From: Actinoallomurus soli
GTDB lineage: Bacteria > Actinomycetota > Actinomycetes > Streptosporangiales > Streptosporangiaceae
Length of the DNA stretch: 64,000 bases
Reading direction: 5' to 3'
Assembly: GCF_024055715.1 (NCBI RefSeq)
Contig: NZ_JAMXMV010000003.1
Location: 372,001 to 436,000, forward strand
Shown here: piece by piece, positions 4,992 to 40,931 of the stretch
Layout of the letters: the number at the start of each line of letters is the position of its first letter
Position numbering within the stretch: position 1 is the stretch's first letter
Translations under genes and position numbers: made by a program
Notes under the pieces: generated by a model
The model's database searches: none
Told to the model about the DNA's origin: nothing
What the model saw: the letters and a program-made list of their open reading frames with translations, nothing else

Positions 4992-6533
<1,542 letters not shown>

Positions 6534-12310: not shown

Positions 12311-12366
12311 GGCGCCTCCTCTCGCGGACGCGGCCCGGGGCGGAACCCAGGGCCGCCATCCGTCGC

Positions 12367-12483: not shown

Positions 12484-12487
12484 GGTT

Positions 12488-13745: not shown

Positions 13746-13772
13746 TCGGCGGACCGCTCTCCGGCCGGTTCA

Positions 13773-15014
13773 TCAGAGGCGGACGACCACCAGGGCGACA
13801 TCGTCGGAGGCACCGCAGCGGAGCCGGTCCAGGAGGGCGTCGGCCAGCTCCTGCGGCGGCAGTTCCCGGTACTCGGCGAGGGTGGCGGTCAGCCGGGCCA
13901 GCCCGATGTCGATGTCCTCACCGCGGCGTTCGATGAGCCCGTCGGTGTAGAGCACGAGGGTGTCCCCCGTGCGGTACTGCAGGGTGGCCTGGGGCCGGGG
14001 GACGACTTCGGGGCGAACGCCCAGCGGCGGGTCGGTCGCCCGATCGAGCAGTTCGTGGCCGCCGCCGGCATGCGCGAGCACCGGCGGCGGATGACCGGCG
14101 CTGCTGTAGGCGATGAGGCGGCTGCGAGGATGGATCACAGCCTTGACGGCGGTCGCGCCCAGCGCCCCTTCCACGGAACCGGCGTACTGGTCCAGCGACT
14201 GCAGCGCCTGCGCGGGGCTGTGGGTGTTCCGGACGGCGCCGCTCAGGACGAACCGCAGCGTGCCCATGATGGCGGCGGCCTCCAGCCCGTGGCCGACGAC
14301 GTCGCCGACCGCCATGGAGAAGACTCCGTCGGTCAGGTCCGCCACGTCGTACCAGTCACCGCAGACGTGCAGCGACTCGGTCGCCGGCTCGTACCGCACC
14401 GCGATCTCCGGGTGCCGGGCCAGGTCCGGGGTGTGCAGCATACGGTCCTGGATGGCGAGGGCGACCTGGCGTTCGCGGGCGTACGACCGGCGCAGCTCGT
14501 CGTTCAGCCGCTGCAGCTCCAGCGCATGGTCGAACAGCTCGGCGGCCAGCGCCTGCTCCCGCCCGCTCAGGTTCTCGTGCGACGGCCGGTCGCCGGTGTC
14601 GCAGAAGTCGACGAACGCCGTGACGTCCACGGTCCGCATCAGGAACCACGCCAACGTGCCGTCCGGGCCGGCCACGGGGGTGATGGTCGACGACCACCAG
14701 CGCTCCTCGAATTCCCCGGACCGCCCCGGCACCGCGACGTCGTACCGGATCGGCGCCATCGTGTCGGGCCGGCGCGACGTCGCCACCCAGCGCAGCGAGT
14801 CCTCCAGCCTGCGCTTCCCGCCACCGGAGGGGCCCGCGGGATCGGCCGGGAAGACCGAGAACAGGTCCTTCCCGATCAGCTCATCACGGGTCCGCTCCGT
14901 CACGTCGAGAAATGCCTGATTGACGTCCGCGATCACCAGGTGGGGGTCCAGCACCGCATAAGGAGTCGGAGCGACGGCGAACATCGCTCCAAAATCGATC
15001 TTCGCAGTGCTCAC
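13773..15014 (-). CDS. PAS-domain SpoIIE/RsbU-type PP2C phosphatase
   Basis: An N-terminal PAS domain (YAVLDPHLVIADVNQAFLDV through ~130), a helical linker (~145-190) and a SpoIIE phosphatase domain (~195-413). Metal-binding motifs seen are CGDWYDV, VGDVVGHG and GASDDVALVV. The family dephosphorylates anti-anti-sigma proteins in partner-switching regulation. GTG 15014 (VSTAKIDFG) is preferred because AGGA precedes it; GTG 15047 adds 11 residues but lacks a ribosome binding site. It converges with the lipoprotein gene, with 27 bp between stops. Confidence 0.85.
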   Translation of the reverse strand: MSTAKIDFGAMFAVAPTPYAVLDPHLVIADVNQAFLDVTERTRDELIGKDLFSVFPADPAGPSGGGKRRLEDSLRWVATSRRPDTMAPIRYDVAVPGRSGEFEERWWSSTITPVAGPDGTLAWFLMRTVDVTAFVDFCDTGDRPSHENLSGREQALAAELFDHALELQRLNDELRRSYARERQVALAIQDRMLHTPDLARHPEIAVRYEPATESLHVCGDWYDVADLTDGVFSMAVGDVVGHGLEAAAIMGTLRFVLSGAVRNTHSPAQALQSLDQYAGSVEGALGATAVKAVIHPRSRLIAYSSAGHPPPVLAHAGGGHELLDRATDPPLGVRPEVVPRPQATLQYRTGDTLVLYTDGLIERRGEDIDIGLARLTATLAEYRELPPQELADALLDRLRCGASDDVALVVVRL

Positions 15015-25761: not shown

Positions 25762-25806
25762 ATGCGTGTGCTGGTCGTCGAGGACGAAGCCCTGCCCTTC
25801 CGGTGA
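25762..25806 (+). pseudogene. Possible response-regulator stub
   Basis: Encodes MRVLVVEDEAL and stops after 14 codons. MRVLVVEDE is the first strand and acidic pocket of OmpR-type receiver domains and is rarely met by chance. The remaining receiver and DNA-binding domains are absent. The surrounding 25650-25937 segment otherwise holds no supported gene. Confidence 0.35.
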
Positions 25807-25937
25807 CGAGATCGCCGAACGCATCGCCGCCAACGGCGACGGCCTGCCCGGCGAACACCGAGCAGAGCGCGCGCGGGCCGCCTCATGCGGCTCCCGCCTA
25901 CGCCCCATCTGTCGCATACCGGGCGTACGGTTCGATC

Positions 25938-27173
25938 ATGGCGCTCACCGACATCACGCGCGAAGCGGTCCTCGCCGCGATCGCCGAGTTCGACCGGCTG
26001 GGCCGTGACGCCTTCCTGGAGAAGTACGGGTTCGACTCCTCCCGCCGGTACTGGCTCCTGCACGACGGAGCGCGCTACGACTCCAAGGCCATCGCGGGAG
26101 CCGCCCACGGCCACCTGCCCGGCCGCTCTCCCCTGGCGGCGAAGGAGTTCTCCGGCGGCAGGGACCACGCCGTGACCGTGCTACGGCGCCTCGGCTTCGA
26201 AGTGACCAGCGCACCCAACGGCGACTCGTCCAGCTTTCAGACCGCGGACGAGATCGCCTCGGCCATCGGCGACCTGCGTCCCGCCTCAGCCTCCGGCAAA
26301 CCGATGCTCAAGCAGGCCGTTGTCCTCCTGTGGGCGATCGGTCGCGCCCGCGCCGGACAGGACCGCCTTCTGGGATGGGCCGACACCGTTGCCGCGCTGA
26401 GCCCGCTGCTGCAGGCTTATCGCCGGGATGGCGAAAGCCGCCATGGCCGGCCGGACTACCCGATCGCCGCGCTGTTCAATGCCGGGCTGTGGGACTTGCC
26501 CGGCCGCACCGACGTCCCACGAGCCCACGGCACCGCCGCATGGGCGTGGTTCGCCGAACAGGAACCCGAAGGTGGCCTGCCAGAGTTCGTGTACGCGCTC
26601 GCCCGCCGCTCGGGCCCGGCGCGGGTCCGCATGATCGACGCGATCGCCGCGCGGTTCTTCGACGACTTCGACGAGAGCGGCCTCCTCACCGCCGTCGGGC
26701 TCTACGACGAAGGCGTCGCCGCCGACGAGGCACCACCGCGTGGAAGCTCCGACCAGGAGACGGCGCGCGGGCGCTCCCCCGAGGCAGCCAGATCCGACTA
26801 CGCCCGACTGTGCGAACTGGTGGCGCGCCGGGAGACCCGCACGCACGGGCAGCGGCGCACCAGGATCGCAGGCGACCCGATCCGGATCGGCGTCGCTCGC
26901 CGGGCGGTCCTGCTCCGGAGCGAAGGCCGCTGCGAGAACCCCGGATGCGCCAAGCCGGCCCCGGACCGCAACGATCGCGGAGAGCCGCTCCTGGAAGTCG
27001 ACCACGTCGAGCAGCTGGCCGACGGCGGCCGTGACCATCCCGTCCAGATGATCGCCCTGTGCCCCGACTGCCATCGGGTCAAGACGCACGGGCAGAGCCG
27101 CCACCAGCTCATTCCCGTACTAACTCAGCGGGCACGCGAACTCCACGACCAGTGGATGTGTACGGGCGGCTGA
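25938..27173 (+). CDS. HNH endonuclease with ScoMcrA-like N-terminal and sulfur-binding-like domains (type IV restriction candidate)
   Basis: 411 aa. The N-terminal domain (~1-90: MALTDITREAVLAAIAEFDR, YDSKAIAGAAHGH, FSGG) matches the head domain of ScoMcrA-type enzymes. A middle domain (~118-190: VVLLWAIGRA, RPDYPIAALFNAGLWDL) resembles the DNA sulfur-binding domain. The C-terminal HNH (~330-388) has CENPGC, LEVDHVEQLADGG, LCPDCHRVKTHG, i.e. the Zn Cys and catalytic His. ScoMcrA-family enzymes restrict phosphorothioated DNA. The PT-pocket residues differ from those I remember (LKQAVV at the usual HKPLLL position), so sulfur recognition is uncertain. No dnd genes are nearby, as expected for a type IV enzyme. 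Confidence 0.72.
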   Translation: MALTDITREAVLAAIAEFDRLGRDAFLEKYGFDSSRRYWLLHDGARYDSKAIAGAAHGHLPGRSPLAAKEFSGGRDHAVTVLRRLGFEVTSAPNGDSSSFQTADEIASAIGDLRPASASGKPMLKQAVVLLWAIGRARAGQDRLLGWADTVAALSPLLQAYRRDGESRHGRPDYPIAALFNAGLWDLPGRTDVPRAHGTAAWAWFAEQEPEGGLPEFVYALARRSGPARVRMIDAIAARFFDDFDESGLLTAVGLYDEGVAADEAPPRGSSDQETARGRSPEAARSDYARLCELVARRETRTHGQRRTRIAGDPIRIGVARRAVLLRSEGRCENPGCAKPAPDRNDRGEPLLEVDHVEQLADGGRDHPVQMIALCPDCHRVKTHGQSRHQLIPVLTQRARELHDQWMCTGG

Positions 27174-27257: not shown

Positions 27258-28487
27258 CTACCTGAACCGCTTACGTACGGAGCGGAGAACCACGCGGGCC
27301 GTACGGGTGGTCAGCAGGGCTGCCGTGAAGACGAGGCAGGCGGCGAGAACGATGCCGAACATCCATGGGCTGTGCGAGCCGAGGGCCTGCAGGAGCGCGA
27401 GGGCGAGGCCTGCCGGCACGGTGACGAGGGTGAACAGGACCAGAGCGTTGTTGACGTAGCGTTTCTCATCGTCCCTCGTCAGCCGGTTGTAGTCGCTGAT
27501 CTCCGTGAGCACCTGTTCGAAGCGCTCACGGAGCCGGTGCTGGCGCTGGTAGGCGCCGAGCAGCTGGTTGGGGACGCCGTGCGTGGACAGGTGCTGCCAC
27601 CACAGTTCGTGCCGGAACAGCGTCACCCGCCGTTCGAGCTCGGCCATCGCCGAGGCGAACGGCGCGTCGAGTGCCGAGACGAGGGCGTCCTCGAGGTCAC
27701 TGATGCCCTGCAGTTGGAGAACGCCGATGAGCACGGCGTCGAGGTAGATGCTGTGGAAGTACAGCTCGGCGTGGTTGTAGAAGGGGTCACGGGGTCCTTC
27801 GTCGGGACGACAGCCCACCAGTGACAGACCATCGCGGAGGACGAGGCCGCGCCAGTCCGCGGACAGCCGGACGAAGTCGAAGCCGGAGGGTCCGGTGTTC
27901 TGCGGTATCGGCAGCTGCCGAGGGTCCGGCGGATGGTCGGCGACGTTCGTACGCGACGCCAACGCCCAGAGCCATTGGTCGGCGCTCGACCAGCGCGCGT
28001 ACCGCAGATGCCGGTAGAGGCGAGGGAACCAGCGGCCCCGCTGCGTGACGAAGCTGAGGGTGTACGACACGGCCGCGTCGAGGACGGCCTGTTCATCGAC
28101 GAGTTCCCGTGGGTCGAATCCATCGAGCCGTGTGCCTCGTCGCCGGGCGAGCGCCCGGACGACGTCGAGCGGGTGGGCATCGACGGTCTTGAGATGCACG
28201 ATGACCAGGCCGTGCGCGCCGGGCTCCTCACGCAGGCAGACGGCTTCCATCCCCTGGATCTCAACGCCGCCCGTCCGCAGGTCGAGGAGCTTGTGCCAGC
28301 GGCGGGGCCGGCCGGTCGACCCGTACAGCAGGCGGGCCGTACGCGGCGGATAGTAGGTGGAGCGCTCGTCGGCGCCGGCGCGTACGTCGCCGTACTCGAA
28401 CGGCAGCGGGCCTTCGGCCCAGTCCGGTGTCTTGGGGAAGGTCGCCTGGTAGACGGCGGTGATGACGGCGCGCGCCGGCCGGGTCAT
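27258..28487 (-). CDS. CorA-like two-TM membrane protein (candidate effector), 409 aa
   Basis: A large soluble N-terminal part (~1-330) contains YLDAVLIGVLQLQG and a long charged helix with ERRVTLFRHELWWQHL. Two closely spaced TM helices end the protein (ALVLFTLVTVPAGLALALL ~345-365; FGIVLAACLVFTAALL ~373-392). This topology recalls CorA-like membrane effectors. ATG 28487 overlaps the stop of the 92-aa gene (ATGA), and it is the last gene of the four-gene operon. Pore formation on activation is a hypothesis from topology and context, not from a recognised motif. Confidence 0.65.
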   Translation of the reverse strand: MTRPARAVITAVYQATFPKTPDWAEGPLPFEYGDVRAGADERSTYYPPRTARLLYGSTGRPRRWHKLLDLRTGGVEIQGMEAVCLREEPGAHGLVIVHLKTVDAHPLDVVRALARRRGTRLDGFDPRELVDEQAVLDAAVSYTLSFVTQRGRWFPRLYRHLRYARWSSADQWLWALASRTNVADHPPDPRQLPIPQNTGPSGFDFVRLSADWRGLVLRDGLSLVGCRPDEGPRDPFYNHAELYFHSIYLDAVLIGVLQLQGISDLEDALVSALDAPFASAMAELERRVTLFRHELWWQHLSTHGVPNQLLGAYQRQHRLRERFEQVLTEISDYNRLTRDDEKRYVNNALVLFTLVTVPAGLALALLQALGSHSPWMFGIVLAACLVFTAALLTTRTARVVLRSVRKRFR

Positions 28488-28762
28488 CGGTAGTAGGCCT
28501 CTACCTCGGGGAGGTCGAGGCGGATGATGTAGGTGGCCTCGCTGGGCCGGTCGGGGTCGTCGATGAACCGCACGCGTTCTCCGGTGCGGATGGTCCGGAA
28601 CCCTTCGGTGACTATGTCGGCGTACATGAAGGTGTAGTCGTCTCCCGTGTCGACGTCACGGACGACGTAGACACCTGTTCGCCCGGCCTGGCCGCTGCCG
28701 AAGGGGCGGCGTTCGACGATGCGCCCGAGTCGCTGCCGGGCGTTGGCCGAAGGTTCGGTCAT
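28484..28762 (-). CDS. Small conserved-looking protein in HEPN-NACHT-FGE operon, 92 aa
   Basis: Reads MTEPSANARQRLGRIVERR, then a beta-rich core (GVYVVRDVDTGDDYTFMYAD, GERVRFIDDP, TYIIRLDLP) resembling a small OB/SH3-like cold-shock-type barrel. Both ends overlap neighbours by four bases. The short length and barrel-like pattern suggest nucleic acid or ligand binding. No family recognised. Confidence 0.6.
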   Translation of the reverse strand: MTEPSANARQRLGRIVERRPFGSGQAGRTGVYVVRDVDTGDDYTFMYADIVTEGFRTIRTGERVRFIDDPDRPSEATYIIRLDLPEVEAYYR

Positions 28763-31392
28763 CCGAGGTCCTCCACACAGCGGAAGCCGACGACGTTGCT
28801 GGCGCCGCGGCGCCGGTACAGGCCCTTCGACGAGGTCTGGACGGCGCGGTAGGGGTTGTCGTACGAGCCGCCGCACATCACGATGTCGCCGGTCTCTTCG
28901 ATGACGGTCGAGGTGAGTTCCCAGACGTTGCCCACCATCTGCCGGATCCCGAAGGGTGAGCGGTTCCGCGGATTCGCGTCGACCTGCACGCGGGTGGCGT
29001 CGCGCAGGCCGCCGCGGTCGAGTTCTTCCTTCCAGACCTCGTACGTGACGAGCGGGCGTCCGCTCCAGGTGTCGGCGCAGTTGACGGCCTCCAGGTCGAG
29101 GTCGTCGCCCCAGGGGAAGAGACGCCCGTCGGCACCGCGGGCGGCGGCCTCCCATTCCAGGGAGGTCGGCAGGCGTTTCCCTTCGAAGCGCGCGAAGGCG
29201 TAGGCGTTCCACCAGTTGATGCAGACCGCCGGGTGGTCGTCGTACGCGGGGTCGTCGTAGTAGTCGGGGACGGCGAGCCGTTCGCGCCATGGCTGGTGGG
29301 TCTGGTCGGGCGGCATGTCGGGGTGGTCCCACTCGGCCGATCCGTCGCGCTCGACGGCGGCGAGGAACCGCTTGTAGCGGCCGACGGTCACGGCGTACCG
29401 GTCGAAGCGCACGGGCCGTTCGACGGTGCGGAGCATCAGGTGGTGACTCGGGCCGACGAGGTACGTCCCGGCCGGCAGCACGCAGTCGTCGGTGGTGTCG
29501 TCGTTCCGGGAGCGGTGGTGCAGGAACGCGCGGGTCTGCGCGGACAGCGTCGACCCGCTCGCCGGGCGGTCGCGCCGGAGGTGTTCTGCGGCGAGCAGTT
29601 CCTGGTAGGCGGAGTGGGTGAAGGCGATCCGCTCGTCTCCGGCGGGCCGGAACAGCGGCCATAGCTTGAACGCCTCGAAGGCGATCCTGCCGCCCTCGAA
29701 GCAGCCGATCCCCAGCGCGTTGCACACGTCGATCAGCGTGAACGTCGTACGGCCCTGCAGCGCCGCGCCGCCGAAGTAGTCGACGAGCTGCGGGATCTGC
29801 TCGGGGATCCCGGCGTCGGCGACGGCCTGTTCGAGGTGGGTCCACAGCAGGTCCGGCAGTGGTGCCTCGTGTCCGAGCATGCGCGACAGCCGCAGTTCCA
29901 GCGGTGAGCCGTCGTCGGTGCCGTCGCCGTCGAAGTCGACGTCGTGCAGGTGCAGCGCGGAGAACCGCGGGATCTTCAAAGGGTCGACGCCCTGAGCGTG
30001 CAGGTGCTGGACGAGCTTCTCCGACATCAGCGCGGTGCCGTCGAGCAGCCGGCGTACCTCGGGTGAGTCCTCCAAAAACGACACCCGGGAGCTCATGACG
30101 ACCGCGGACTCGGCCGACAGGATCTCGGCGAGCTCGGCGAACAGGTCCAGGAACCCGGTGAGGGTCGTCTCGTGCACGGCCTCGTCAATGCCGTCCAGCG
30201 CGCACACGACCGACCCGGATCGGGCGAAGTAGTGGAAGACGTCGAAGACACGGGACGTCTCGACCGACATGCAGTCGGCGAGCGTACGAGTGACGAAGTC
30301 TCTGAAGCTCTCGTCCTTCCGCTTGAGGCTCATGTCGAAGTAGAAGCGGTAACGCCGTACGTCCGCGTCCCGGCCGTCCGCGACCAGCCGTTTCAACAGC
30401 GTGCTCTTGCCACTCCCCGACCGGCCGACGACCAGGACGTTCCCACCGGTCAGGGCCACGTCACCGAGCAGGTCCATGGCGTCGCCCAGCCGGGAGAGCG
30501 CCATCTCGCCCGAACGCTCGTCGGTGGTCAGCAGGTCCGCCGCGATCGGCAGCCGTTCCGGTGCGGGCAGCGCGCCGAGCGCCGGGTGCGCCTCGGCCGC
30601 CGCGTCCAGGTGCGCGTCCACATCGACGACGGTCTCCATGAACCGGTCGTACGTGACGACCCGGTAGTCCTCGAACGCCTCGGCCTCCTCGTCCTGTTCG
30701 TCCACGACGAGGAACCGGGTGAGCTTGGGCAGCCGCGTCTGCAGCAGCTCGCCGCCGGTGCTCCGCAGCACCTGGTGCAGCTCGCCGATGTGCCGGGTCA
30801 GCAGCAGCTCGACGTACTCGGTCCGCAGACCGGTCTCCCGGCTGAACAGCTGGTAGACGGTGTGCTGAGACAGTTCGAACCGTTTGACCGGCCGAAAGTC
30901 CAGCGTCAGGTAGAGGCCGGCGAGGAACTCCGCCTTCTTGGCGACGAGCGGAGTCAGTCGTGGTACGTCTCCGGTGAGCACGACGCTGCCGGTGCTGGTG
31001 AACCAGACGAGCACATCCAGCAGCCGGCGTACGGCGGTCAGCCCGTCCTCTTCGGCGATCTCGTACCCGTCGTGCGCGGAGCGGTTCCGCAGCCGCTGGA
31101 TGTCGCGGAGCGCGTCCAGCACGGCGCCGCTGGCGATGTGCGTCTGGCAGCCTTTGATCAGCTCGCTCAGCGACTTGCCGGACGGGTCGCCGGGCACGTC
31201 GTGGTGCCGCCAGAGCTGCTTGAGGATCCGCTCGGTGATCTTCCCGACCCACGAGATGGCGTTCTCGGGGTACCCGTCGCCGAGCGACTTGATGGGACGC
31301 TCGAAATCCAGGCCGAGGAACGTCGCGATCCGGGAATGGTCGTCGAGTTCGGTCTTCAGCCGGTGCAGGCGTTCATCCAGTTGCGGGCTCAC
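28759..31392 (-). CDS. HEPN-NACHT/STAND NTPase with C-terminal formylglycine-generating-enzyme-like domain
   Basis: 877 aa. The N-terminal helical region (~30-125) contains DIQRLRNRSAHDGYE near 97-110; R-N-R-S-A-H fits the HEPN RNase motif Rx4-6H. A NACHT-type NTPase follows: Walker A GRSGSGKST near 325, Walker B ALDGIDEAV near 400, and winged-helix/helical region to ~620. The C-terminal ~240 residues are an FGE/sulfatase-modifying-factor domain (YAVTVGRYKRFL, PAVCINWWNAYAFARFEGKR, LPTSLEWEAAARGADGR, QMVGNVWELTS, VMCGGSYDNP, VGFRC). FGE-like domains in STAND proteins are thought to be sensor/partner modules. GTG 31392 overlaps the methyltransferase stop. Confidence 0.82.
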   Translation of the reverse strand: MSPQLDERLHRLKTELDDHSRIATFLGLDFERPIKSLGDGYPENAISWVGKITERILKQLWRHHDVPGDPSGKSLSELIKGCQTHIASGAVLDALRDIQRLRNRSAHDGYEIAEEDGLTAVRRLLDVLVWFTSTGSVVLTGDVPRLTPLVAKKAEFLAGLYLTLDFRPVKRFELSQHTVYQLFSRETGLRTEYVELLLTRHIGELHQVLRSTGGELLQTRLPKLTRFLVVDEQDEEAEAFEDYRVVTYDRFMETVVDVDAHLDAAAEAHPALGALPAPERLPIAADLLTTDERSGEMALSRLGDAMDLLGDVALTGGNVLVVGRSGSGKSTLLKRLVADGRDADVRRYRFYFDMSLKRKDESFRDFVTRTLADCMSVETSRVFDVFHYFARSGSVVCALDGIDEAVHETTLTGFLDLFAELAEILSAESAVVMSSRVSFLEDSPEVRRLLDGTALMSEKLVQHLHAQGVDPLKIPRFSALHLHDVDFDGDGTDDGSPLELRLSRMLGHEAPLPDLLWTHLEQAVADAGIPEQIPQLVDYFGGAALQGRTTFTLIDVCNALGIGCFEGGRIAFEAFKLWPLFRPAGDERIAFTHSAYQELLAAEHLRRDRPASGSTLSAQTRAFLHHRSRNDDTTDDCVLPAGTYLVGPSHHLMLRTVERPVRFDRYAVTVGRYKRFLAAVERDGSAEWDHPDMPPDQTHQPWRERLAVPDYYDDPAYDDHPAVCINWWNAYAFARFEGKRLPTSLEWEAAARGADGRLFPWGDDLDLEAVNCADTWSGRPLVTYEVWKEELDRGGLRDATRVQVDANPRNRSPFGIRQMVGNVWELTSTVIEETGDIVMCGGSYDNPYRAVQTSSKGLYRRRGASNVVGFRCVEDLG

Positions 31393-32135
31393 GAGCGCAC
31401 CCCCCGGACGAAGGCGAACCGGTCGGGGAAGCTCAACCGCTCGCCGGGGTACCGCTTGTCGATCTCCGCGATGCCAGCCTCGATCTGCTCGTCGTCGAAG
31501 CACGACAGCAGGGACATGTACCGATTCCGCACCATCGTCAGGTACCGGGCCTTGCTGAACGACAGCGGGAAGGACGCATAGTCGAGGCCGACCCGCAGGC
31601 CGGCGTCCCGCAGGTACGCGGCGATGTCCTCGGGGTCCGGCTGCAGCCGTTCGAACATGGCGATGGCCTCGCCGAACAGCGGATACTCGATGCGCGTGGG
31701 GAGCATCACCACCAGCAGACGGCCGCCGTCGGCCAGCAGGTCGGCGAGGCCACGCAACACCGCTCGGCGGTCATCGACGTGGTGGATGGCCTCCTTGACC
31801 AGGACGGTGTCGAACCGGTCGTACGGCAGCGGCACCTCACCCGACGCAAGCTGTTCCGCCGATGCCTCCACTGGGAGGTAGGAGTCTCCGGTGGGCAGCT
31901 GCTTCAGCATCTTCGCCGACGGATCGACGCACACCACCCGGCCCGCCCGCTCGGCCAGCCCCCGCGCGTAAAGGCCGGTGCCGCATCCGACGTCGGCGAC
32001 CCGATCTCCGGGCGCGGGATCGAGCCGATCGAGGATGCATCCCGTCATCCAGCCGATGAACTCAGGGCTGTACGCCCAGTTCTCGTCGTAGCTGTCCGCC
32101 AGCCGGTCATAGTGAGCCCGTGTCTCGCCCTGCAC
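31389..32135 (-). CDS. Class I SAM-dependent methyltransferase
   Basis: 248 aa. Motif I VADVGCGTGLYARGL near residue 45, acidic VCVDPSAK (motif II) near 67, and VLVKEAIHHVDD (post-II/IV) near 108; Methyltransf_11 type. C-terminal helical part is not conserved. It is the first gene of the four-gene operon. GTG 32135 follows GGAGGAA 8 nt upstream. The substrate is unknown; it might modify the NTPase, or nucleic acid as a self-marker, but both are speculation. Confidence 0.82.
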   Translation of the reverse strand: MQGETRAHYDRLADSYDENWAYSPEFIGWMTGCILDRLDPAPGDRVADVGCGTGLYARGLAERAGRVVCVDPSAKMLKQLPTGDSYLPVEASAEQLASGEVPLPYDRFDTVLVKEAIHHVDDRRAVLRGLADLLADGGRLLVVMLPTRIEYPLFGEAIAMFERLQPDPEDIAAYLRDAGLRVGLDYASFPLSFSKARYLTMVRNRYMSLLSCFDDEQIEAGIAEIDKRYPGERLSFPDRFAFVRGVRS

Positions 32136-32479
32136 CGTGGGGATTCCTCCAGCCCATCAACTCGACCTCGCACTAACCGTAACCTGCGTGGTTGTGGACT
32201 TCCCGACCCTGACCAGTCAAGGCCATCGGGGAACCGCTCCGTCGGTGCGAGAGTCGAATCGCGTAGCCCGGTCATCTTCTTCGAGTGCGATTCGGTCTGA
32301 CACACAGCCACCGGTCTTTAGCCCTCGGGTAGAGAGCGCTCCAGAGCCGAACGTTCACGCCGCGCACCGGTTCGGGCATTGGACCTGCGCGAATGTCCGT
32401 TGATTCCGCAGCGTGTTCGAACAACACATGCTGTAATCGGCTCCAATACCCCCTGATCGACGGCCCGGGGAGGTCGACG
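32136..32479. other. Divergent intergenic region between the STAND operon and XRE regulator
   Basis: 344 bp with lower GC than the genes on either side. A TTGACT hexamer on the minus strand near 32,216 could be a -35 for the operon, but no convincing -10 follows. No gene is supported. The location suggests it contains promoters for both directions, so the regulator at 32480 could also control the operon. Confidence 0.4.
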
Positions 32480-33358
32480 ATGAGCAGCCCCTTCGTCCGC
32501 CGGCGACGCCTCGCCACCGAGTTGCGTACGCTCCGCGAAGCGCGCGGCCTGACCGCCGACCAGCTGGCGTGCCGGATCCACCAGTCGCGCATGAAGATCT
32601 CCAAGCTGGAGAACGCACACGTACGGCCAGACCTCGCCGACGTCATGAAGATCCTCGACGTCCTGGGCGTGACAGGCGACAAGTGGCACGACATCGTCCG
32701 CATCGCCCGCGACGCCGCCGAACGTGGCTGGTGGGACTCATACGGCGACGCGATGGGCGACCGACAGCGGCTGTACGCCGACATCGAGTCCGGCGCGAAG
32801 ACAATCCGCGAATACCAGCCCGGCGCCATGCCCGGCATCCTGCAGACCCCGGACTACACCTGGGCACTGATCGAGCACGCCAAGGCCGAAGGCCCCATCA
32901 CCTACATCCCCGAACGCCTCGTCGAGGCGAGACTCCAACGTCAGCGGACCGTACTCCGCCCAGATGGGCCGGAGTACGAGGTCATCCTCGATGAAGTCGG
33001 CCTCCGCCGTTTTACCGTCCCGCCTGACGTCATGTGCGCCCAACTGAATCACGTAATCAGGGTCGCTGAGACCCACGCTCGAGTCACTGTGCGGATATTT
33101 CCCCTGGTCACAGGGGTCGCATCTGCGCTGACTCCGGGAGCTCAGTTGATCGTCTACACGTTTCCAGATCCCGCAGATCCTACGATGGCGACTGTACAAA
33201 CGGTGGCCGCTGAGATATTCCATACAGAGCCAGAGGAGGTAGCGCGATACCTCCGCAGGTATCAATATGTACGAGAGGCAGCACTGTCGGAGGTAAGAAG
33301 TCTCAGCTTTCTGAGTGCACTCGCCAGCCAGATCAGCGACGAGAGAGAGCCGACATAG
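32480..33358 (+). CDS. XRE-family regulator with DUF5753 domain
   Basis: 292 aa. HTH (~10-65) with LREARGLTADQLACRIHQSR and ISKLENAHVRPDLADV, then a DUF5753 sensor domain (~95-285) with EPGAMPGILQTPDYT-type sequence (here EYQPGAMPGILQTPDYT) and VRIFPL near 210. ATG 32480 follows GGGGAGGT. Paired with a DUF397 gene (TAGTG overlap), the usual arrangement. It is divergent from the methyltransferase/NACHT operon and may regulate it, which I infer from position only. Confidence 0.9.
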   Translation: MSSPFVRRRRLATELRTLREARGLTADQLACRIHQSRMKISKLENAHVRPDLADVMKILDVLGVTGDKWHDIVRIARDAAERGWWDSYGDAMGDRQRLYADIESGAKTIREYQPGAMPGILQTPDYTWALIEHAKAEGPITYIPERLVEARLQRQRTVLRPDGPEYEVILDEVGLRRFTVPPDVMCAQLNHVIRVAETHARVTVRIFPLVTGVASALTPGAQLIVYTFPDPADPTMATVQTVAAEIFHTEPEEVARYLRRYQYVREAALSEVRSLSFLSALASQISDEREPT

Positions 33359-34468: not shown

Positions 34469-34855
34469 AACCGGCTGCGCTCCCGCCCGACATGGCGTCC
34501 TTCCTTGTAACCGCGGTTCAGACCGGCGCGGAGCGGGTCCAAGGTCAGCAACCGATCGCATGCGACGCCGAAGGGCCCTGCCGGTTCTGGCCATCGGCCG
34601 CGGTGGTCCAGAGCTGCCGGGTGCGGCCTGTGCGAGGCGGAGTGCGCCGAGGTGCCTGACCTCTCGTTGCTGGCGCTTTGTGTCGGCCCCCTTCGCTACG
34701 GTGCAGGCGGGCCTGCAATCCCGCCTGACGGCCCGCGTACGCAGGAGGCTGAGGTGCGCGAAGATGGCCGCGGACGTGCGTTGCCTTGCGGGGGCGCGAC
34801 TACCCCAGTGGGCCGACGCAGCCATGCACGCTGAGTGATTTCTGTGAGGAGGCTT
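34469..34855. other. Region upstream of hsdM without a supported gene
   Basis: 387 bp. Open frames here give Arg/Cys-rich translations typical of noncoding GC-rich DNA. Presumably holds the hsdMSR promoter and the left boundary of the type I island. I could not recognise the missing 3' end of the DrmD-like helicase here. Confidence 0.4.
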
Positions 34856-36601
34856 GTGAGCACGCTCGGTAGTTTCATCTGGTCGATTGCCGACCAGCTT
34901 CGGGGTCCCTACCGCCCCAACCAGTACGGCAACGTAATCCTCCCGTTTACGATCCTTCGGCGCCTCGACTGCATCTTGGAGCCGGACCGCGAGACCGTCC
35001 GGGACCTGGCTGCGGCATACGAGAACCCGAACCGGCTCCGGATCCAGGTCAAGAAGGCCACCGGCCGGCCGTTCTACAACACGTCGAAGTACAGCTTCGC
35101 CAACCTTCTGAAGGACGCGGACGGGCTCGAGGACAACCTCGTCGACTACGTCGACCGGTTCTCCCCCGATGTCGATGTGTTCGAGTACTTCGATTTCAAG
35201 AAGGAGATCATCGCCCTGGAGAAGGCCGGTCTCCTGCGCGAGATCGTGAAGTCCTTCGGCGCCGTCGACCTGCACCCCGATGTCGTGTCCAACGCCGACA
35301 TGGGGGACGCGTTCGAGTACATCATTCGCAAGTTCAACGAGGCCGCGAACGAGACCTCCGGTGACCACTACACGCCGCGCGACGCGATCCGGCTGCTGGT
35401 CGACCTGCTCTTCGCCGAGAAGGACGCCGACCTGACCGAGGCAGGCATCGTCCGCACGCTCTACGATCCCACCGCTGGCACCGGCGGCATGCTCGCCCTA
35501 GCAGAGGAGCACCTACTCGCACAGAACCCGGACGCCCGGCTGAGCCTGTACGGCCAGGAGTACAACCCCCAGTCGTACGCGATCTGTAAGTCCGACCTGC
35601 TCGCCAAGGGCCACGACGCGTCCAACATCGCCTTCGGCAACACGCTCACCGACGACGCCTTCAAGGGCCGCCAGTTCGACTTCTGCATGTCCAACCCGCC
35701 GTACGGCGTCGACTGGAAGCAGTACGCCAAGGCCGTCACCAAAGAGCGCGACGAGGCCGGCCCGTACGGCCGCTTCGCGCCGGGCCTGCCAGCGACCTCA
35801 GACGGGCAGATGCTCTTCCTGCTGCACCTGGCGCACAAGATGCGCGCCCCCGAAGACGGCGGCGGCCGGGCCGGGATCGTCATGAACGGCTCGCCGCTCT
35901 TCAACGGGGCCGCGGAGTCCGGACCGTCCAACATCCGCAGGTGGCTGTTGGAGAGCGATCTGGTCGAGGCGATCGTCGCGCTGCCGACCAACATGTTCTT
36001 CAACACCGGCATTGCCACCTACATCTGGATCCTCGACAACAACAAGCACCCCGACCGCAAGGGCTTGGTCCAGCTCATCGACGGCACCTCGTTCTGGACC
36101 AAGATGCGCAAGAACCTCGGCTCCAAGGGCCGCGAGATCAGCGACACCGACCGCGCCCAGATCCTCCGCCTGTACGCCGACTTCACCGACGCCGACCCCG
36201 ACTTCTCCAAGGTGCTACGCAACGACGAATTCGGCTACTGGACCATCACTGTCGAGCGCCCGCTGCTGGATGAGTGTGGCAAGCCTGTCGTCGACCGCAA
36301 GGCGAAGCCGAAGCCCGACTCAAAGAAGCGCGATACCGAGAACGTGCCCTTCACCTACGGCGGCTCGACCGCCGGACCTGCGGGCAAGGCCGAGGTCATC
36401 CAGTCATACTTCGACACCGAGGTGAAGCCGCACGTACCCGACGCCTGGATCGACTGGGCCAAGGTCAAGACCGGCTATGAGATACCCTTCACCCGGCATT
36501 TCTACAAGTACGTCCCGCCCCGGCCGCTCGCCGAGATCGACGCCGACCTGGATAAACAGGTCGCCAAGATCCTCGACCTCCTGCGAGAGGTCGAGGGATG
36601 A
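34856..36601 (+). CDS. hsdM: Type I restriction-modification DNA methyltransferase subunit HsdM
   Basis: 581 aa N6-adenine methyltransferase. An N-terminal HsdM_N-type helical domain (~1-150: FIWSIADQLRGPYRPNQYGN) precedes the catalytic domain: SAM-binding motif I YDPTAGTGGML near 202-212 and motif IV NPPYGVDW near 280. Functions with HsdS as modification enzyme and with HsdR for restriction. GTG 34856 lies three bases after AGGAGG, closer than ideal; the in-frame GTG at 34844 would overlap that Shine-Dalgarno. Overlaps hsdS by ATGA. All key motifs are present. Confidence 0.93.
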   Translation: MSTLGSFIWSIADQLRGPYRPNQYGNVILPFTILRRLDCILEPDRETVRDLAAAYENPNRLRIQVKKATGRPFYNTSKYSFANLLKDADGLEDNLVDYVDRFSPDVDVFEYFDFKKEIIALEKAGLLREIVKSFGAVDLHPDVVSNADMGDAFEYIIRKFNEAANETSGDHYTPRDAIRLLVDLLFAEKDADLTEAGIVRTLYDPTAGTGGMLALAEEHLLAQNPDARLSLYGQEYNPQSYAICKSDLLAKGHDASNIAFGNTLTDDAFKGRQFDFCMSNPPYGVDWKQYAKAVTKERDEAGPYGRFAPGLPATSDGQMLFLLHLAHKMRAPEDGGGRAGIVMNGSPLFNGAAESGPSNIRRWLLESDLVEAIVALPTNMFFNTGIATYIWILDNNKHPDRKGLVQLIDGTSFWTKMRKNLGSKGREISDTDRAQILRLYADFTDADPDFSKVLRNDEFGYWTITVERPLLDECGKPVVDRKAKPKPDSKKRDTENVPFTYGGSTAGPAGKAEVIQSYFDTEVKPHVPDAWIDWAKVKTGYEIPFTRHFYKYVPPRPLAEIDADLDKQVAKILDLLREVEG

Positions 36602-37800
36602 CGCTTACCTGGCCCGGAGCGCCGGAACTTCCACAGTTGCCGTTCGGCCGTTTGTTCCGGCGGCTCGAACGTCCTATCCCCGAGGGGGCGGCGATCGTCA
36701 CCGCCTACACGGACGGTCAAGTTACTTTGCGCTCGAATCGCAAGAAGGAGCGTTACCACGAGGCCGCAGATCTTTCGTCCTTTCAGGGCGTCGAGGTCGG
36801 AGACTTTGTTGTGCATGGCCTCGACATCTTGCGAGGATCGGTTGGAATTTCAGACTCGGCTGGCGCAATGAGTCCAGTCGTCTCGGTGTGCGAGCCGGTT
36901 GGCGCCGTCGACTTGCGGTATGTCGCTCACGTGATCAGGATCCAAGCAGCGACGGGTTATACGAAGGCGATGGCCCGAGGTATCCGAGAAGGTGGCGCTG
37001 ACTTCCGTCGCTGGGGCACGCTCGCCGAGCTTCCGATCCCCGTTCCGCCATTGGAGTACCAGCGGCGGGTATGTGATTACCTCGACCGCGAGACCGCCCG
37101 CATCGACACCCTCATCGAGGAGCAGCAGCGCCTGATCGAGATGCTCCACGAGCGGCGACACTCACTTGTTGAGGTCGCCTTCTGTGATCGGATGCCCAAT
37201 GCACGTCTCCAGAACGCGTGCATCGACGTCGTTGATTGCCCGCACACAACTCCAGAAGCGTCTGACGACGGCGAGTACGAAGCCGTTCGAACCGCCTCAG
37301 TTCGGCATGGGAAGTTCCGACCGGGAAATGGGATTCCTGTCACGGCTGACACATGGAGCGCCCGTAACGCTGGGGGGGCACCAGCTATCGGCGATGTTCT
37401 ATTCACGCGCGAAGCGCCCGCCGGCGAGGCTTGCATGGTGCCAAACAATCGGATCTGCCTAGGCCAGCGGATGGTGTTGCTCCGGATTGACTCTTCCGCG
37501 TGTATTGGGAGGTTCTTGCTCTGGCAGATCTACTCCGACCGCGTTCAAGACTACTTTGTTCTCTCGGCGAACGGATCGACCGTGGCTAACGTTCGACTGC
37601 CGGTGTTGCGTACGACGCCGATCTGGTTGCCTAATCTCGACGAACAGCGACGCATTGCCGATGAATTGGACGAACAGACAGCAAAGATCGACCAACTCAT
37701 CACCGAGTCGGAGCGGTTCATCGAGCTCGCCCGCGAGCGGCGGTCTGCGCTGATCACGGCGGCAGTTACGGGTCAGATCGACGTCTCCAAGGTGGCGTGA
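36598..37800 (+). CDS. hsdS: Type I restriction specificity subunit HsdS
   Basis: 400 aa with two target-recognition domains (~1-150 and ~200-345). They are separated by conserved coiled-coil spacers: LEYQRRVCDYLDRETARIDT (~160-185) and DEQRRIADELDEQTAKIDQL (~345-370). The two spacers are repeats of one another, as usual. Determines the bipartite DNA target; the target cannot be read from sequence. Base composition in the first domain and second domain is lower in GC than hsdM/hsdR, typical of exchangeable TRDs. ATG overlaps the hsdM stop. Confidence 0.92.
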   Translation: MTLTWPGAPELPQLPFGRLFRRLERPIPEGAAIVTAYTDGQVTLRSNRKKERYHEAADLSSFQGVEVGDFVVHGLDILRGSVGISDSAGAMSPVVSVCEPVGAVDLRYVAHVIRIQAATGYTKAMARGIREGGADFRRWGTLAELPIPVPPLEYQRRVCDYLDRETARIDTLIEEQQRLIEMLHERRHSLVEVAFCDRMPNARLQNACIDVVDCPHTTPEASDDGEYEAVRTASVRHGKFRPGNGIPVTADTWSARNAGGAPAIGDVLFTREAPAGEACMVPNNRICLGQRMVLLRIDSSACIGRFLLWQIYSDRVQDYFVLSANGSTVANVRLPVLRTTPIWLPNLDEQRRIADELDEQTAKIDQLITESERFIELARERRSALITAAVTGQIDVSKVA

Positions 37801-40800
37801 TGGCCGATCACAACGAAGTTGTCTTCGAGGCCGAGATCTGCGAGCACCTTGCGGCCCACGGGTGGCTGTACTCGGCCAACGACACCGGCTATGACCGTGA
37901 GCGGGCGCTGTTCCCCGAGGATCTGTTCGCGTGGCTGGAGGCGACCCAGAAGCCAGCGTACGAGAAGGCGTTGAAGGCGGCGGGGTCGCAGGCGAAGTTC
38001 CTCGATGTGCTGACGACGGCGCTCGACAAGCCGCTGGAGCATGGCGGCGGGATGCTGAACATCCTGCGGACCGGGGTGCAGTACATCGGCGGTGGCCGGT
38101 TGAAGATGGCGCAGTTCCGGCCCGAGACGACGCTGAACGCGACAACGAACGCCGAATATGCGGCGATGCGCGTCCGAGTGATGCGACAGGTTCGCTTCTC
38201 GACCGCCGACCAGCGCAGCATCGACCTGGTGTTCTTCGTCAACGGGCTCCCGGTCGCGACGGTGGAACTGAAGACCGACTTCACCCAGTCGCTGGACGAG
38301 GCGGTCCAGCAGTACCGGAAAGAGCGCAATCCGCTGACCAACGGTCGGCGTGAGCCGCTGCTGTCGTTCGGGCATCGGGCGCTGGTCCACTTCGCGGTCT
38401 CCAACGACCTGGCCGCGATGACCACCCGGCTGGAGGGCGAGAAGACGCAATTCCTGCCGTTCAACACCGGCTTCGACGACGGTGCCGGGAACCCGCCCGG
38501 CGCGGACGGGAGGTCGGCGACGGCGTACCTGTGGGAGCGGGTCTGGGAGAAGAACGCCTGGCTGAACATCATCGGCCGGCTGGTGATCGTGGAGACCAAG
38601 GAGGAGTGGGATGTCGCGACCGGCACGTCGGTGCGTCGTACGAGCATGCTGTTCCCCCGGTTCCACCAGTGGGAGGCGGTCACGAACATCGTGGCTGCTG
38701 TGGCAGAAGAGGGGGTCGGCCAGCGCTACCTAATCGAGCACTCCGCGGGATCGGGGAAAACGAACACGATCGCCTGGACGGCGCACCGTCTCGCCAGGCT
38801 GCACATCGACGATGAGAAGGTCTTCGACTCGGTCATCGTGGTCGTGGACCGCAGGGTGCTCGATGGGCAGCTTCAGGACGCGATCCGGCAGATGGACGGT
38901 TCCGGGAAGATCTTTGCGACTATCACCCCCGAGGACGTGCGTAAGGCTGGCGTAAAGTCGAAGTCCGGCTTGCTGGCACAGGTGCTGAAGAGTGGCGAGT
39001 TGATCATCGCGGTGACGATTCAGACCTTCCCGTATGCGCTCGATGAGATCCGGGGCGACTCCGGCCTGAAGGGCAAGCGGTTCGCCGTCATCGCCGATGA
39101 GGCGCACTCCTCGCAGTCGGGGCAGATTTCCTCCAAGCTGAAGCAGGTTCTGACCGCCGAGGAGATCAAGGAGATCGAGGACGGCGGCTCGATCGACGTC
39201 GAGGCGGTCTTGGCCTCGGAGATGGCCGAGCGGGCCGAGTCGGAGAACATCTCCTACTTCGCCTTCACCGCAACCCCGAAGAACAAGACCAAAGAACTGT
39301 TCGGCCGCAAGGGGCCGGATGGCAAACCGCATGAGTTCCACCTGTACTCGATGAAGCAGGCGATCGAGGAGGGCTACATCCTCGACGTACTCAAGGGCTA
39401 CCAGTCCTACGACACTGCGTTGAAGATCGCCGGTAAGGCCGAGAGCGGCGACGGTGGCGAGGTTGAGGAGTCGGCTGCGCGCAAGGGGCTGATGCGGTGG
39501 GTGCAGCTGCATCCGACCAATATCAGCCGGAAGGTGCAGATCATCGTCGAGCACTTCCACGCCAACGTCGCCCATCTTCTGGAGGGCAAGGCGAAGGCGA
39601 TGGTCGTCACCGACTCGCGCAAGGCTGCGGTGAAGTACAAGAAGGCGATCGACGCCTACATCGCCAAGCGAGCCACCGAGGACGCGTCGTACAACTACCG
39701 GACCCTGGTCGCGTTCTCCGGTTCGGTGTCGATGGCCGAGAGCGAGAAGTGGAGCCAGGACTGGGGGCCGACGCCGTCCAAGGACGACGAGTTCACCGAG
39801 GCCAGCATGAACCCCGGAGCGGGCGCCGACCTGGCCGCGGCGTTCAAGGGCGAAACGTACAAGATCATGCTGGTCGCCAACAAGTTCCAGACTGGCTTCG
39901 ACCAGCCCCTGCTCTCGGCGATGTACATCGACAGGAAGCTCTCCGGGGTGACCGCCGTGCAGACGCTCTCCCGGCTCAACCGAACCCACCGCACCGCCAG
40001 CGGGGAGCAGAAGGCCAAGACCTTCGTCATCGACTTCGTCAACAAGCCCGAGGACATCAGAGCCGCCTTCGAGCCGTACTTCACCAACGCCACCCTGGAG
40101 ACCGAGACCGACCCGTACGTCGTCGTACACCTGGCGAACAAGCTCGCCCAGGCGGGGATCTACACCGAGGAGCAGGTTCGCCAGGTCGCCGAACTGTGGG
40201 TCACCCGCAAGGGCAACAACGCACTCTCGGCGGCGATCAGCCCGGCCCAGCACGACTTCCGGCGTCGCTACGCGGCAGCGATCGAGGCCGAGGACAAGGT
40301 CACGCTCAATGCCCTCGACCTCTTCCGCAAGGACGTCTCCACCTACGTGCGGCTCTACGACTTCATGAGCCAGATCGTCAACTACGGCGACACGTACATG
40401 GAGATGCTCTCGACCTTCCTCCGACTCCTGGAGAAGGTCATCGCCGAGTCCTCCTGGAGCGCCGACGTCGACCTTTCCGACGTGGTCCTGGTCGGGGTGA
40501 AGCACACCAAGAAGATCGCCGTCGACATTTCACTGACTGGAGACGGCGAGCTGAAGGGGATCAGCGCAGCAGGCACCGGCACCAAGAAGGAGCCGAAGTA
40601 CGTCGCGCTCCAGGTCGTTATCGACAAGATGAACGACCTCTTTGGCGCCCAGTCGTTCGCCGAGTCCCAGATCCGGGAGTTCGTGCAGGGGCTCGTGCAG
40701 CGGCTGCTCGCCAACCCGGACCTGGTGCAGCAGACCCAGGTGAACTCGAAGAAGCAGTTCATGGAATCGCAGGACTTCCAGTCCGCCGTCACCGAGGCCA

Positions 40801-40931
40801 TCGCCGACAACCAGGCGGCGCACAACACCATGGCCGACTACTTCTTCACCGACGGGCCTGCGATCAACGAAATCATCATGGCGCTCGCCGATGCGTTCTA
40901 CGAGGCCGCGATCGACAAGGGTGTCGTTTGA
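37800..40931 (+). CDS. hsdR: Type I restriction endonuclease subunit HsdR
   Basis: 1043 aa. N-terminal PD-(D/E)xK nuclease (DLVFFVNGLPVATVELKTD, ~141-160), helicase motor domains with Walker A HSAGSGKTNT near 313 and DEAH-type box VIADEAHSSQSG near 430, motif III YFAFTATPKNKT near 485, motif VI LSRLNRTHR near 725, and a helical C-terminus. Length and motifs are complete, so the hsdMSR system looks functional. ATG 37800 overlaps the hsdS stop by one base. The 3' end lies 67 bp from the broken end of the helicase on the opposite strand. Confidence 0.93.
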   Translation: MADHNEVVFEAEICEHLAAHGWLYSANDTGYDRERALFPEDLFAWLEATQKPAYEKALKAAGSQAKFLDVLTTALDKPLEHGGGMLNILRTGVQYIGGGRLKMAQFRPETTLNATTNAEYAAMRVRVMRQVRFSTADQRSIDLVFFVNGLPVATVELKTDFTQSLDEAVQQYRKERNPLTNGRREPLLSFGHRALVHFAVSNDLAAMTTRLEGEKTQFLPFNTGFDDGAGNPPGADGRSATAYLWERVWEKNAWLNIIGRLVIVETKEEWDVATGTSVRRTSMLFPRFHQWEAVTNIVAAVAEEGVGQRYLIEHSAGSGKTNTIAWTAHRLARLHIDDEKVFDSVIVVVDRRVLDGQLQDAIRQMDGSGKIFATITPEDVRKAGVKSKSGLLAQVLKSGELIIAVTIQTFPYALDEIRGDSGLKGKRFAVIADEAHSSQSGQISSKLKQVLTAEEIKEIEDGGSIDVEAVLASEMAERAESENISYFAFTATPKNKTKELFGRKGPDGKPHEFHLYSMKQAIEEGYILDVLKGYQSYDTALKIAGKAESGDGGEVEESAARKGLMRWVQLHPTNISRKVQIIVEHFHANVAHLLEGKAKAMVVTDSRKAAVKYKKAIDAYIAKRATEDASYNYRTLVAFSGSVSMAESEKWSQDWGPTPSKDDEFTEASMNPGAGADLAAAFKGETYKIMLVANKFQTGFDQPLLSAMYIDRKLSGVTAVQTLSRLNRTHRTASGEQKAKTFVIDFVNKPEDIRAAFEPYFTNATLETETDPYVVVHLANKLAQAGIYTEEQVRQVAELWVTRKGNNALSAAISPAQHDFRRRYAAAIEAEDKVTLNALDLFRKDVSTYVRLYDFMSQIVNYGDTYMEMLSTFLRLLEKVIAESSWSADVDLSDVVLVGVKHTKKIAVDISLTGDGELKGISAAGTGTKKEPKYVALQVVIDKMNDLFGAQSFAESQIREFVQGLVQRLLANPDLVQQTQVNSKKQFMESQDFQSAVTEAIADNQAAHNTMADYFFTDGPAINEIIMALADAFYEAAIDKGVV

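What the first reader, a model, noticed from the sequence alone, without database searches (positions are those of the whole stretch)
27258..32135. Four-gene operon: SAM methyltransferase, HEPN-NACHT-FGE protein, 92-aa protein, two-TM membrane protein
All three junctions are four-base overlaps (31389-31392, 28759-28762, 28484-28487), so the genes form one translationally coupled unit. The central 877-aa protein joins a HEPN-like RNase motif (RNRSAH), a NACHT/STAND motor (GRSGSGKST; ALDGIDEA) and an FGE-like sensor domain. STAND proteins with FGE domains are known in prokaryotic conflict systems, but I know of no characterised system with this methyltransferase, barrel-like 92-aa protein and CorA-like membrane protein. 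A natural model is sensing by FGE, oligomerisation by NACHT, and killing by HEPN RNase and/or membrane disruption; the methyltransferase may set the off state. The model is inference.
Basis: partly seen in the sequence, partly recalled or inferred. Interest (0 to 1): 0.87.

Follow-up and report, generated by a model that had tools for sequence, protein, structure and literature searches.

The report
Four-gene bacterial NLR-like defence cassette
A fixed set of four genes in soil actinobacteria encodes an immune-receptor-like protein with a predicted RNA-cutting head, together with a predicted membrane protein, a small cold-shock-like protein and a methyltransferase, and it most likely stops infected cells from spreading viruses or plasmids, although nobody has tested it here.

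Summary
Confirmed: four minus-strand genes (27258-32135), each overlapping the next by 4 bp. The 877-aa protein is HEPN (residues 36-142) - NACHT/winged-helix (about 316-634) - FGE/C-lectin (638-873). Its HEPN motif RNRxxH and Walker residues are invariant in 22 of 22 full-length homologues. The 92-aa protein is a divergent cold-shock-like protein without the usual RNA-binding motifs (0 of 25). The membrane protein's C-terminal half resembles PADLOC 'CorA-like' defence effectors, not Pfam CorA channels. The key new result is synteny: all four genes in the same order in 24 distinct records (two with one gene broken), including Streptomyces, Nocardia and a Streptomyces plasmid. In 297 genomes, the HEPN domain and the cold-shock-like protein give strong hits in the same 10 genomes, always in this operon. 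No neighbouring family recurs in more than 4 of 23 loci. Known defence genes lie nearby in several loci; in two genomes the operon sits between CRISPR arrays. The membrane gene also occurs in a vWA/KH operon. Best reading: an NLR-type abortive-infection system with an RNase arm and a membrane arm; trigger and methyltransferase role unknown. Effector-STAND-FGE and HEPN-STAND proteins are in print; I did not find this combination.

The parts
31389..32135 (-). SAM-dependent methyltransferase, class I (Methyltransf_11), 248 aa; first gene
   Evidence: Pfam E=2.2e-17; upstream of the HEPN gene in the four-gene loci
28759..31392 (-). HEPN-NACHT-FGE protein, 877 aa
30967..31287 (-). HEPN domain, residues 36-142
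31072..31089 (-). HEPN catalytic motif R102-N-R-S-A-H107 (Rx4H)
   Evidence: R102, N103, R104, H107 invariant in 22 of 22
30067..30438 (-). NACHT P-loop NTPase core (residues 319-442)
   Evidence: Pfam NACHT E=6.6e-7
30403..30426 (-). Walker A GRSGSGKS (residues 323-330)
   Evidence: G323, G326, G328, K329 invariant in 22 of 22; position 330 S or T
30178..30201 (-). Walker B ALDGIDEA (residues 398-405)
   Evidence: D400, D403, E404 invariant in 22 of 22
29491..29940 (-). helical/winged-helix part of the NLR motor (residues 485-634)
28774..29481 (-). FGE-sulfatase / C-lectin-fold domain (residues 638-873), lacks the FGE cysteine pair
   Evidence: Pfam E=4.1e-31; alignment A6; no Cys within 15 residues after GG[SA] in 22 of 22; position of the catalytic cysteines recalled
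28484..28762 (-). 92-aa divergent cold-shock-domain-like protein
   Evidence: hhalign 93.3% over 36 columns to 30 cold-shock proteins, two control profiles about 0.2%; in 297 genomes its 10 strong hits all lie in this operon
27258..28487 (-). CorA-like two-helix membrane protein, 409 aa
   Evidence: PADLOC CorA-like E=1.3e-6, 10 of 10 relatives scanned; Foldseek rows 1-9 of the model are CorA, with low TM-scores; hydrophobic helices about 345-370 and 373-397
31389..31392 (-). GTGA stop/start overlap MTase/HEPN
28759..28762 (-). ATGA stop/start overlap
28484..28487 (-). ATGA stop/start overlap

Best explanation
The operon is a self-contained, horizontally spreading anti-invader (probably abortive-infection) system built around a bacterial NLR-like receptor. 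Shown here by sequence and predicted fold: the receptor has a HEPN head with an intact RNase motif, an intact NACHT ATPase with a winged-helix region, and a C-lectin/FGE tail; it is made with a methyltransferase, a cold-shock-like protein and a CorA-like membrane protein. Inferred: an invader-linked molecule is recognised by the FGE tail, perhaps with the cold-shock-like protein as co-sensor or adaptor; ATP-driven NACHT oligomerisation brings HEPN heads together, HEPN RNases being typically dimeric (PMC13092281, passage); RNA is cut and growth stops. The CorA-like protein is a second effector arm that opens a pore in the inner membrane. The methyltransferase most likely controls the threshold, by marking a self molecule (RNA or protein) or by acting on a small-molecule signal. 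Steps not shown: trigger, RNA target, pore activity, and MTase substrate.
Confidence: 0.6

Rival explanations
1. RNA-level restriction-modification: the methyltransferase marks self RNA (for example a tRNA or rRNA site) and the HEPN head cuts unmarked or invader RNA; NACHT-FGE only regulates the cutter, and the cold-shock-like and membrane proteins are accessories.
For: MTase is the first gene and translationally coupled to the HEPN gene; one relative of the CorA-like gene follows a protein in which a weak P-loop-like part and a methyltransferase are fused, with an isolated RNDFVH (Rx4H) sequence between.
Against: The MTase is a generic class I enzyme whose best solved relatives are small-molecule methyltransferases (phosphoethanolamine, UbiG-like); RNA and protein methyltransferases appear only lower in the list. 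The HEPN nature of the fusion protein is not supported by profile comparison (0.3-1.2%).
Confidence: 0.13
2. An addiction or stress-response module (toxin-antitoxin-like) that does not sense phages: HEPN and the membrane protein are toxins, and the MTase and/or cold-shock-like protein keep them off.
For: Tight coupling, plasmid copy, patchy distribution (10 of 297), broken copies.
Against: An 877-aa NACHT receptor with a lectin-fold tail is far larger than toxin-antitoxin pairs need, and NLR-like parts argue for conditional activation.
Confidence: 0.14
3. A developmental or surface-signalling system of multicellular actinobacteria, unrelated to invaders.
For: Strong hits only in actinobacterial groups that I recall as filamentous or sporulating; in a phylum sample of 286 genomes the HEPN region has only the own genome and one weak hit.
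Against: Patchy presence, presence on a plasmid, different neighbours, defence neighbours and CRISPR arrays.
Confidence: 0.08
4. Divalent-metal transport operon: the CorA-like protein is an Mg2+ channel.
For: CorA chains are Foldseek rows 1-9 of the model (best E 6e-3, probability 0.99).
Against: TM-scores 0.21-0.29; no Pfam CorA match; profile comparison 7.5%; a G-x-N motif in the last 120 residues in only 2 of 23 (that this motif marks the channels is recalled); partners are an RNase/NLR protein.
Confidence: 0.02

Closest known systems
Effector-STAND-FGS conflict proteins (PMC8195603, section 7 read, other passages)
   Same: N-terminal effector, central NACHT/STAND, C-terminal FGS (PF03781) lectin-fold domain
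   Different: Section 7 names EADs, TIR, DRHyd, calcineurin, caspase, trypsin, kinase and FHA as N-termini, not HEPN; it does not describe the MTase, cold-shock-like and CorA-like partners; the FGE domain here is conserved, and no neighbouring family recurs in more than 4 of 23 loci, so no constant retroelement was seen
HEPN-STAND proteins, some with cold-shock-like OB domains (PMC3710099, passages)
   Same: HEPN at the N-terminus of a STAND NTPase; cold-shock-like OB fold in the same system
   Different: There the cold-shock-like domain is at the C-terminus of the same protein; here the C-terminus is FGE and the cold-shock-like protein is a separate gene that lacks the RNP motifs
CorA-like effectors of type III CRISPR, activated by SAM-AMP (PMC10600005, passages)
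   Same: PADLOC CorA-like models match the C-terminal part; larger soluble N-terminal part plus C-terminal membrane helices
   Different: No detectable match in the N-terminal ligand-binding part; partners are HEPN-NACHT-FGE and an MTase; Cas10 was not searched for
bNACHT25-type antiphage NACHT proteins (PMC12169576, passages)
   Same: N-terminal nuclease + NACHT + C-terminal region; nuclease needed for protection
   Different: PD-(D/E)XK DNase instead of HEPN; the words FGE, HEPN and methyltransferase do not occur in that paper's main text; four-gene cassette here
CoCoNuT type IV restriction systems (PMC11090510, passages)
   Same: cold-shock-like folds and HEPN RNases combined with an NTPase motor, predicted to target RNA
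   Different: McrB GTPase motor, not NACHT; no FGE or CorA-like partner in the passages seen

Membership tests
STAND/NACHT-FGS conflict proteins | NACHT/STAND P-loop NTPase with intact Walker A and B | tested here: met
   Pfam NACHT over cut-off; invariant residues in 22 of 22
STAND/NACHT-FGS conflict proteins | C-terminal FGS domain (PF03781) | tested here: met
   E=4.1e-31, residues 638-873
STAND/NACHT-FGS conflict proteins | N-terminal effector or effector-associated domain | tested here: met
   HEPN domain; HEPN is not in the list of that paper's section 7
STAND/NACHT-FGS conflict proteins | frequent link to a diversity-generating retroelement | tested here: inconclusive
   No family recurs in more than 4 of 23 loci within 8 kb; reverse transcriptases as such were not searched
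HEPN RNase superfamily | Rx4-6H motif | tested here: met
   RNRxxH in 22 of 22, 15 of 15 in A5
HEPN RNase superfamily | HEPN helical-bundle fold | tested here: met
HEPN RNase superfamily | RNase activity | not testable with these tools
   needs biochemistry
Catalytic formylglycine-generating enzymes | cysteine pair shortly after the GGSY segment (position recalled) | tested here: not met
   No cysteine within 15 residues after GG[SA] in 22 of 22; four rows (L028, L030, L031, L086) have one further on, just before SN; HMMER alignments to catalytic FGEs end before this segment, so the position rests on recall
CorA Mg2+ channels (PF01544) | match to the CorA family profile | tested here: not met
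   no Pfam match; hhalign 7.5% with 28 actinobacterial CorA proteins
CorA Mg2+ channels (PF01544) | G-x-N (GMN-type) motif after the first membrane helix (motif recalled) | tested here: not met
   G[MVIAL]N in the last 120 residues in 2 of 23 proteins, absent in the window protein
CRISPR type III CorA-like effectors | CorA-like C-terminal membrane region of that family | tested here: met
   PADLOC CorA-like models in the window protein E=1.3e-6 and in 10 of 10 relatives scanned (7 from four-gene operons, 3 from other homes), best E 7e-3 to 2.4e-10; that these models derive from type III CRISPR loci is recalled
CRISPR type III CorA-like effectors | SAM-AMP-binding N-terminal domain | tested here: inconclusive
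   matches begin at profile position 241 or later; nothing found for the N-terminal half
CRISPR type III CorA-like effectors | genetic linkage to Cas10 and a SAM-AMP degrading enzyme | not tested
   Only recurring neighbours were compared and nine neighbours scanned; the CRISPR genes identified were Cas3e and Cas8e (type I-E)
Cold-shock domain (PF00313) | cold-shock sequence/fold | tested here: inconclusive
   hhalign 93.3% but only 36 columns, second half of the domain; single-sequence hits weak, E=0.01-0.09; profile against solved chains best E=0.02
Cold-shock domain (PF00313) | RNP1/RNP2 nucleic-acid-binding motifs (KG[FY]GF[IV], [VI][FY][VA]H) | tested here: not met
   0 of 25 family members, 30 of 30 true cold-shock proteins

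The most novel reading that the evidence does not exclude
The cassette is a CRISPR-independent relative of SAM-AMP signalling: after the NACHT receptor is triggered, the SAM-binding methyltransferase-fold protein makes, changes or removes a SAM-derived messenger that gates the CorA-like pore, while the HEPN head cuts RNA. NLR-type receptors in bacteria would then control two effectors at once, one by direct oligomerisation and one through a small molecule.
Probability: 0.09. Interest if true: 0.93.

Novelty: new variant of a known kind. Interest (0 to 1): 0.68.

Why it matters
It adds a conserved multi-gene NLR-type cassette to the catalogue of likely bacterial immune systems, in which one receptor comes with both an RNase head and a separate membrane protein. 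It links two subjects that have been treated apart, STAND-FGE receptors and CorA-like defence effectors, and shows that the CorA-like gene moves between at least two operon types. The cassette is compact (about 4.9 kb), occurs in Streptomyces and can be tested directly in laboratory Streptomyces.

Tried and rejected

Considered and rejected: formylglycine generation as the function; Mg2+ transport; a fifth operon gene (the two largest groups, 4 of 23 loci each, include the window's DUF5753/XRE regulator and L089's DruE-type helicase; gene calling there was a crude ORF/GC filter and some contigs end early); a second copy in the same genome (PF03781 finds two other FGE proteins, 30-33% alike over parts; the other profiles find one place each). 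The fusion protein in L088 was first read as ATPase-HEPN-MTase; the HEPN part is not supported and a full-length match occurs in 1 of 35 genomes searched, so it is only a lead. An '8-nt tandem array' in L026 is an artefact: that stretch is a run of N.

Rows dropped before counts: L033 (HEPN gene frame broken) left out of A1 and of the 22 full-length rows; L087 and L092 (truncated) too; the length filters kept 22 of 25 HEPN, 22 of 25 MTase, 25 of 25 cold-shock-like and 23 of 25 membrane proteins; L051 left out of the distance comparison because my automatic start/stop choice gave an overlong cold-shock-like protein (18 loci used); 16 of 17 DUF4145 and 28 of 30 CorA loci gave usable sequences. 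Duplicate fetches of one genome under two names (L026/L042, L028/L043, L030/L044, L033/L045, L032/L046, L034/L048, L029/L053, L049/L083) were counted once, judged from contig length. Paper searches: of the listings, six of 21 and three of 13 were not shown, and most listed papers were not opened.
Full report
OBSERVATION. The window (C33:372001-436000 of an unnamed 9.4-Mb genome) carries four minus-strand genes at exactly the coordinates given. The stops and starts overlap by 4 bp at all three junctions. A GGAGG lies just upstream of the first GTG. The unit is divergent from a DUF5753/XRE regulator (32393-33358 +) and convergent with an HNH protein that matches a type IV restriction model (25803-27173 +); a type I restriction-modification system follows at 34835-40931.

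SMALL PARTNERS. The 92-aa protein gives only weak single-sequence hits, to cold-shock proteins (E 0.01-0.09), and its profile is not significant against solved chains (best E 0.02, cold-shock type, with Apaf-1 chains at 0.2-0.3). Against a profile of 30 cold-shock proteins it scores 93.3%, over 36 columns of the second half, with two control profiles at about 0.2%. The RNP motifs are missing in 25 of 25 and present in 30 of 30 true cold-shock proteins, so RNA binding is uncertain. The membrane protein models as an alpha/beta N-terminal part followed by long helices and two C-terminal membrane helices (pLDDT 75; hydropathy). Foldseek rows 1-9 are CorA (best E 6e-3, probability 0.99) but with TM-scores of 0.21-0.29. 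By sequence it does not match Pfam CorA, and profile comparison with 28 actinobacterial CorA proteins gives only 7.5%, but PADLOC CorA-like models match the window protein (E 1.3e-6) and 10 of 10 relatives scanned, 7 of them from four-gene operons (best E 7e-3 to 2.4e-10), from about residue 200 on. Those models are, to my recollection, built from type III CRISPR loci, whose CorA is thought to be a SAM-AMP-activated membrane effector (PMC10600005, passages).

SYNTENY. Searching 297 genomes of the order with the membrane protein found 18 genomes. After fetching 17 regions (the own window makes 18), 10 of 18 have all four genes in order (L033 with the HEPN frame broken), 2 have the membrane gene in another operon (L029, L036), and 6 have only partial matches. 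Searches of the same 297 genomes with the 92-aa profile and the HEPN region each gave 10 strong hits, in those same 10 genomes and at those loci, plus one weak hit each elsewhere. The one genome-contig scan gave 14 loci, 12 with all four genes, among them Thermomonospora, Microtetraspora, Nonomuraea, Streptosporangium, Spongiactinospora, Streptomyces and Nocardia. A class-level sample of 394 genomes gave 16 with the membrane gene: two are from the order sample; of the other 14 (all fetched), 8 have all four genes (L093 with the MTase split in two pieces), 2 have truncated operons (L087, L092), 1 has the fusion (L088), and 3 have only the membrane gene or a piece of it. A 1.03-Mb linear plasmid of Streptomyces mirabilis carries all four. 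With duplicates removed, 24 distinct records have all four: 10 from the order sample, 8 new in the class sample, 5 new in genome contigs (L047, L050, L051, L052, L054) and the plasmid. The MTase/HEPN overlap is 4 bp in 21 of 22. Pairwise distances of the four proteins correlate at 0.86-0.97 over 18 loci; part of this is shared host ancestry.

BOUNDARIES AND NEIGHBOURS. Among 264 neighbour ORFs of 23 loci, no family recurs in more than 4 loci (one group includes the window's DUF5753/XRE regulator, the other L089's DruE-type helicase), so the conserved unit is these four genes (crude ORF calling). I picked nine neighbour proteins of seven genomes for a PADLOC scan: eight of nine matched a defence model at E 1e-5 or better, namely Cas3e and Cas8e (L042), mREase_IV (L031), DrmB (L046) and DrmA (L032, the same genome), DruE (L089), and two UvrD-type helicases (L049, L091) whose best hits are generic; one (L045) had none. 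These were chosen by eye, so they show association, not enrichment. In two genomes the operon lies between arrays of one 29-nt repeat at 61-nt period: L027 has 50 repeats at 4342-7422 and 33 at 12798-14780, on either side of the operon at 7667-12535; L026 has 9 at 6195-7957 (with a run of N inside) and 11 at 13264-14143, around the operon at 8222-13069.

OTHER HOMES OF THE MEMBRANE GENE. In L029 (Nocardiopsis sp. FR4) and L036 the gene precedes three others: a 580-613-aa protein without Pfam match, a protein with a C-terminal KH match and a vWA protein; the three are 35-42% identical between the two loci. A search for the first of these found 6 of 297 genomes, 2 of them (L029 and L036) being the genomes with this arrangement. 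In L088 the gene follows an 848-aa protein with a weak N-terminal P-loop match (E 0.016) and a C-terminal methyltransferase (E 1.5e-21). An RNDFVH sequence lies between, but profile comparison does not support a HEPN domain there, and only 1 of 35 genomes searched has this protein at full length.

MECHANISM. Best reading: a conditional RNase receptor of the NLR type with a second, membrane, effector. Conservation runs HEPN 77%, FGE 68%, NACHT 64%, linker 56%, helical/winged-helix 47% mean pairwise identity. The conserved FGE fits recognition of something constant (a host component disturbed by infection, or a conserved invader part) better than antigen-like diversification. The MTase keeps a SAM-binding motif by sequence, and its closest solved relatives are small-molecule enzymes, with RNA and protein methyltransferases lower in the list; I favour a regulatory role but cannot choose between self-marking and a small-molecule signal.

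KNOWN SYSTEMS. PMC8195603 (section 7 read; passages) describes effector-STAND-FGS proteins with many N-termini, HEPN not among those named there. PMC3710099 (passages) describes bacterial HEPN-STAND proteins, some with cold-shock-like C-terminal domains. PMC7159879, PMC10907252, PMC12839542, PMC11090510, PMC13092281 and PMC12169576 (passages) show related parts in other combinations. Searches for the combination showed no paper that I could recognise as describing this cassette; listings were partly capped, most listed papers were not opened, and subscription journals are mostly missing from the library. I therefore file it as a new variant of a known kind: it meets the architecture of STAND-FGS receptors and the motif and predicted fold of HEPN RNases, fails the definitions of catalytic FGE (with the recalled position) and of Mg2+ CorA channels, and is untested for function.

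Noticed in passing
L029:1700-8601 and L036:2984-9212: A second operon type uses the CorA-like gene: CorA-like, a 580-613-aa protein without Pfam match, a protein with a C-terminal KH match, and a vWA protein.
   Followed up: partly
L088:4509-8361: An 848-aa fusion of a weak P-loop-like part and a methyltransferase directly upstream of a CorA-like gene; full-length match in 1 of 35 genomes searched.
   Followed up: partly
L027:4342-14780 and L026:6195-14143: The four-gene operon lies between two arrays of the same 29-nt CRISPR repeat; near-identical segments (103 nt at 96% in L027; 176 nt at 93% in L026) that start at about the last repeat of each array are shared by the two arrays.
   Followed up: partly
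L086:13592-14671: A second, partial match to the receptor (helical part plus FGE only) downstream of the complete operon.
   Followed up: no
L087:8130-9572 and L092:8806-10837: Decayed operons: in L087 the MTase and the N-terminal half of the receptor are missing; in L092 the start of the MTase match is followed directly by the middle of the receptor.
   Followed up: no
window:25803-27173 (+) and L031:12942-14111 (+): Related type IV (mREase_IV) restriction proteins sit next to the operon in two genomes, on opposite sides.
   Followed up: partly
L001 and L002 (own genome C9 and C60): Two further FGE-domain proteins in the same genome; the one on C60 is about 30% alike to residues 590-873 of the receptor.
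   Followed up: no
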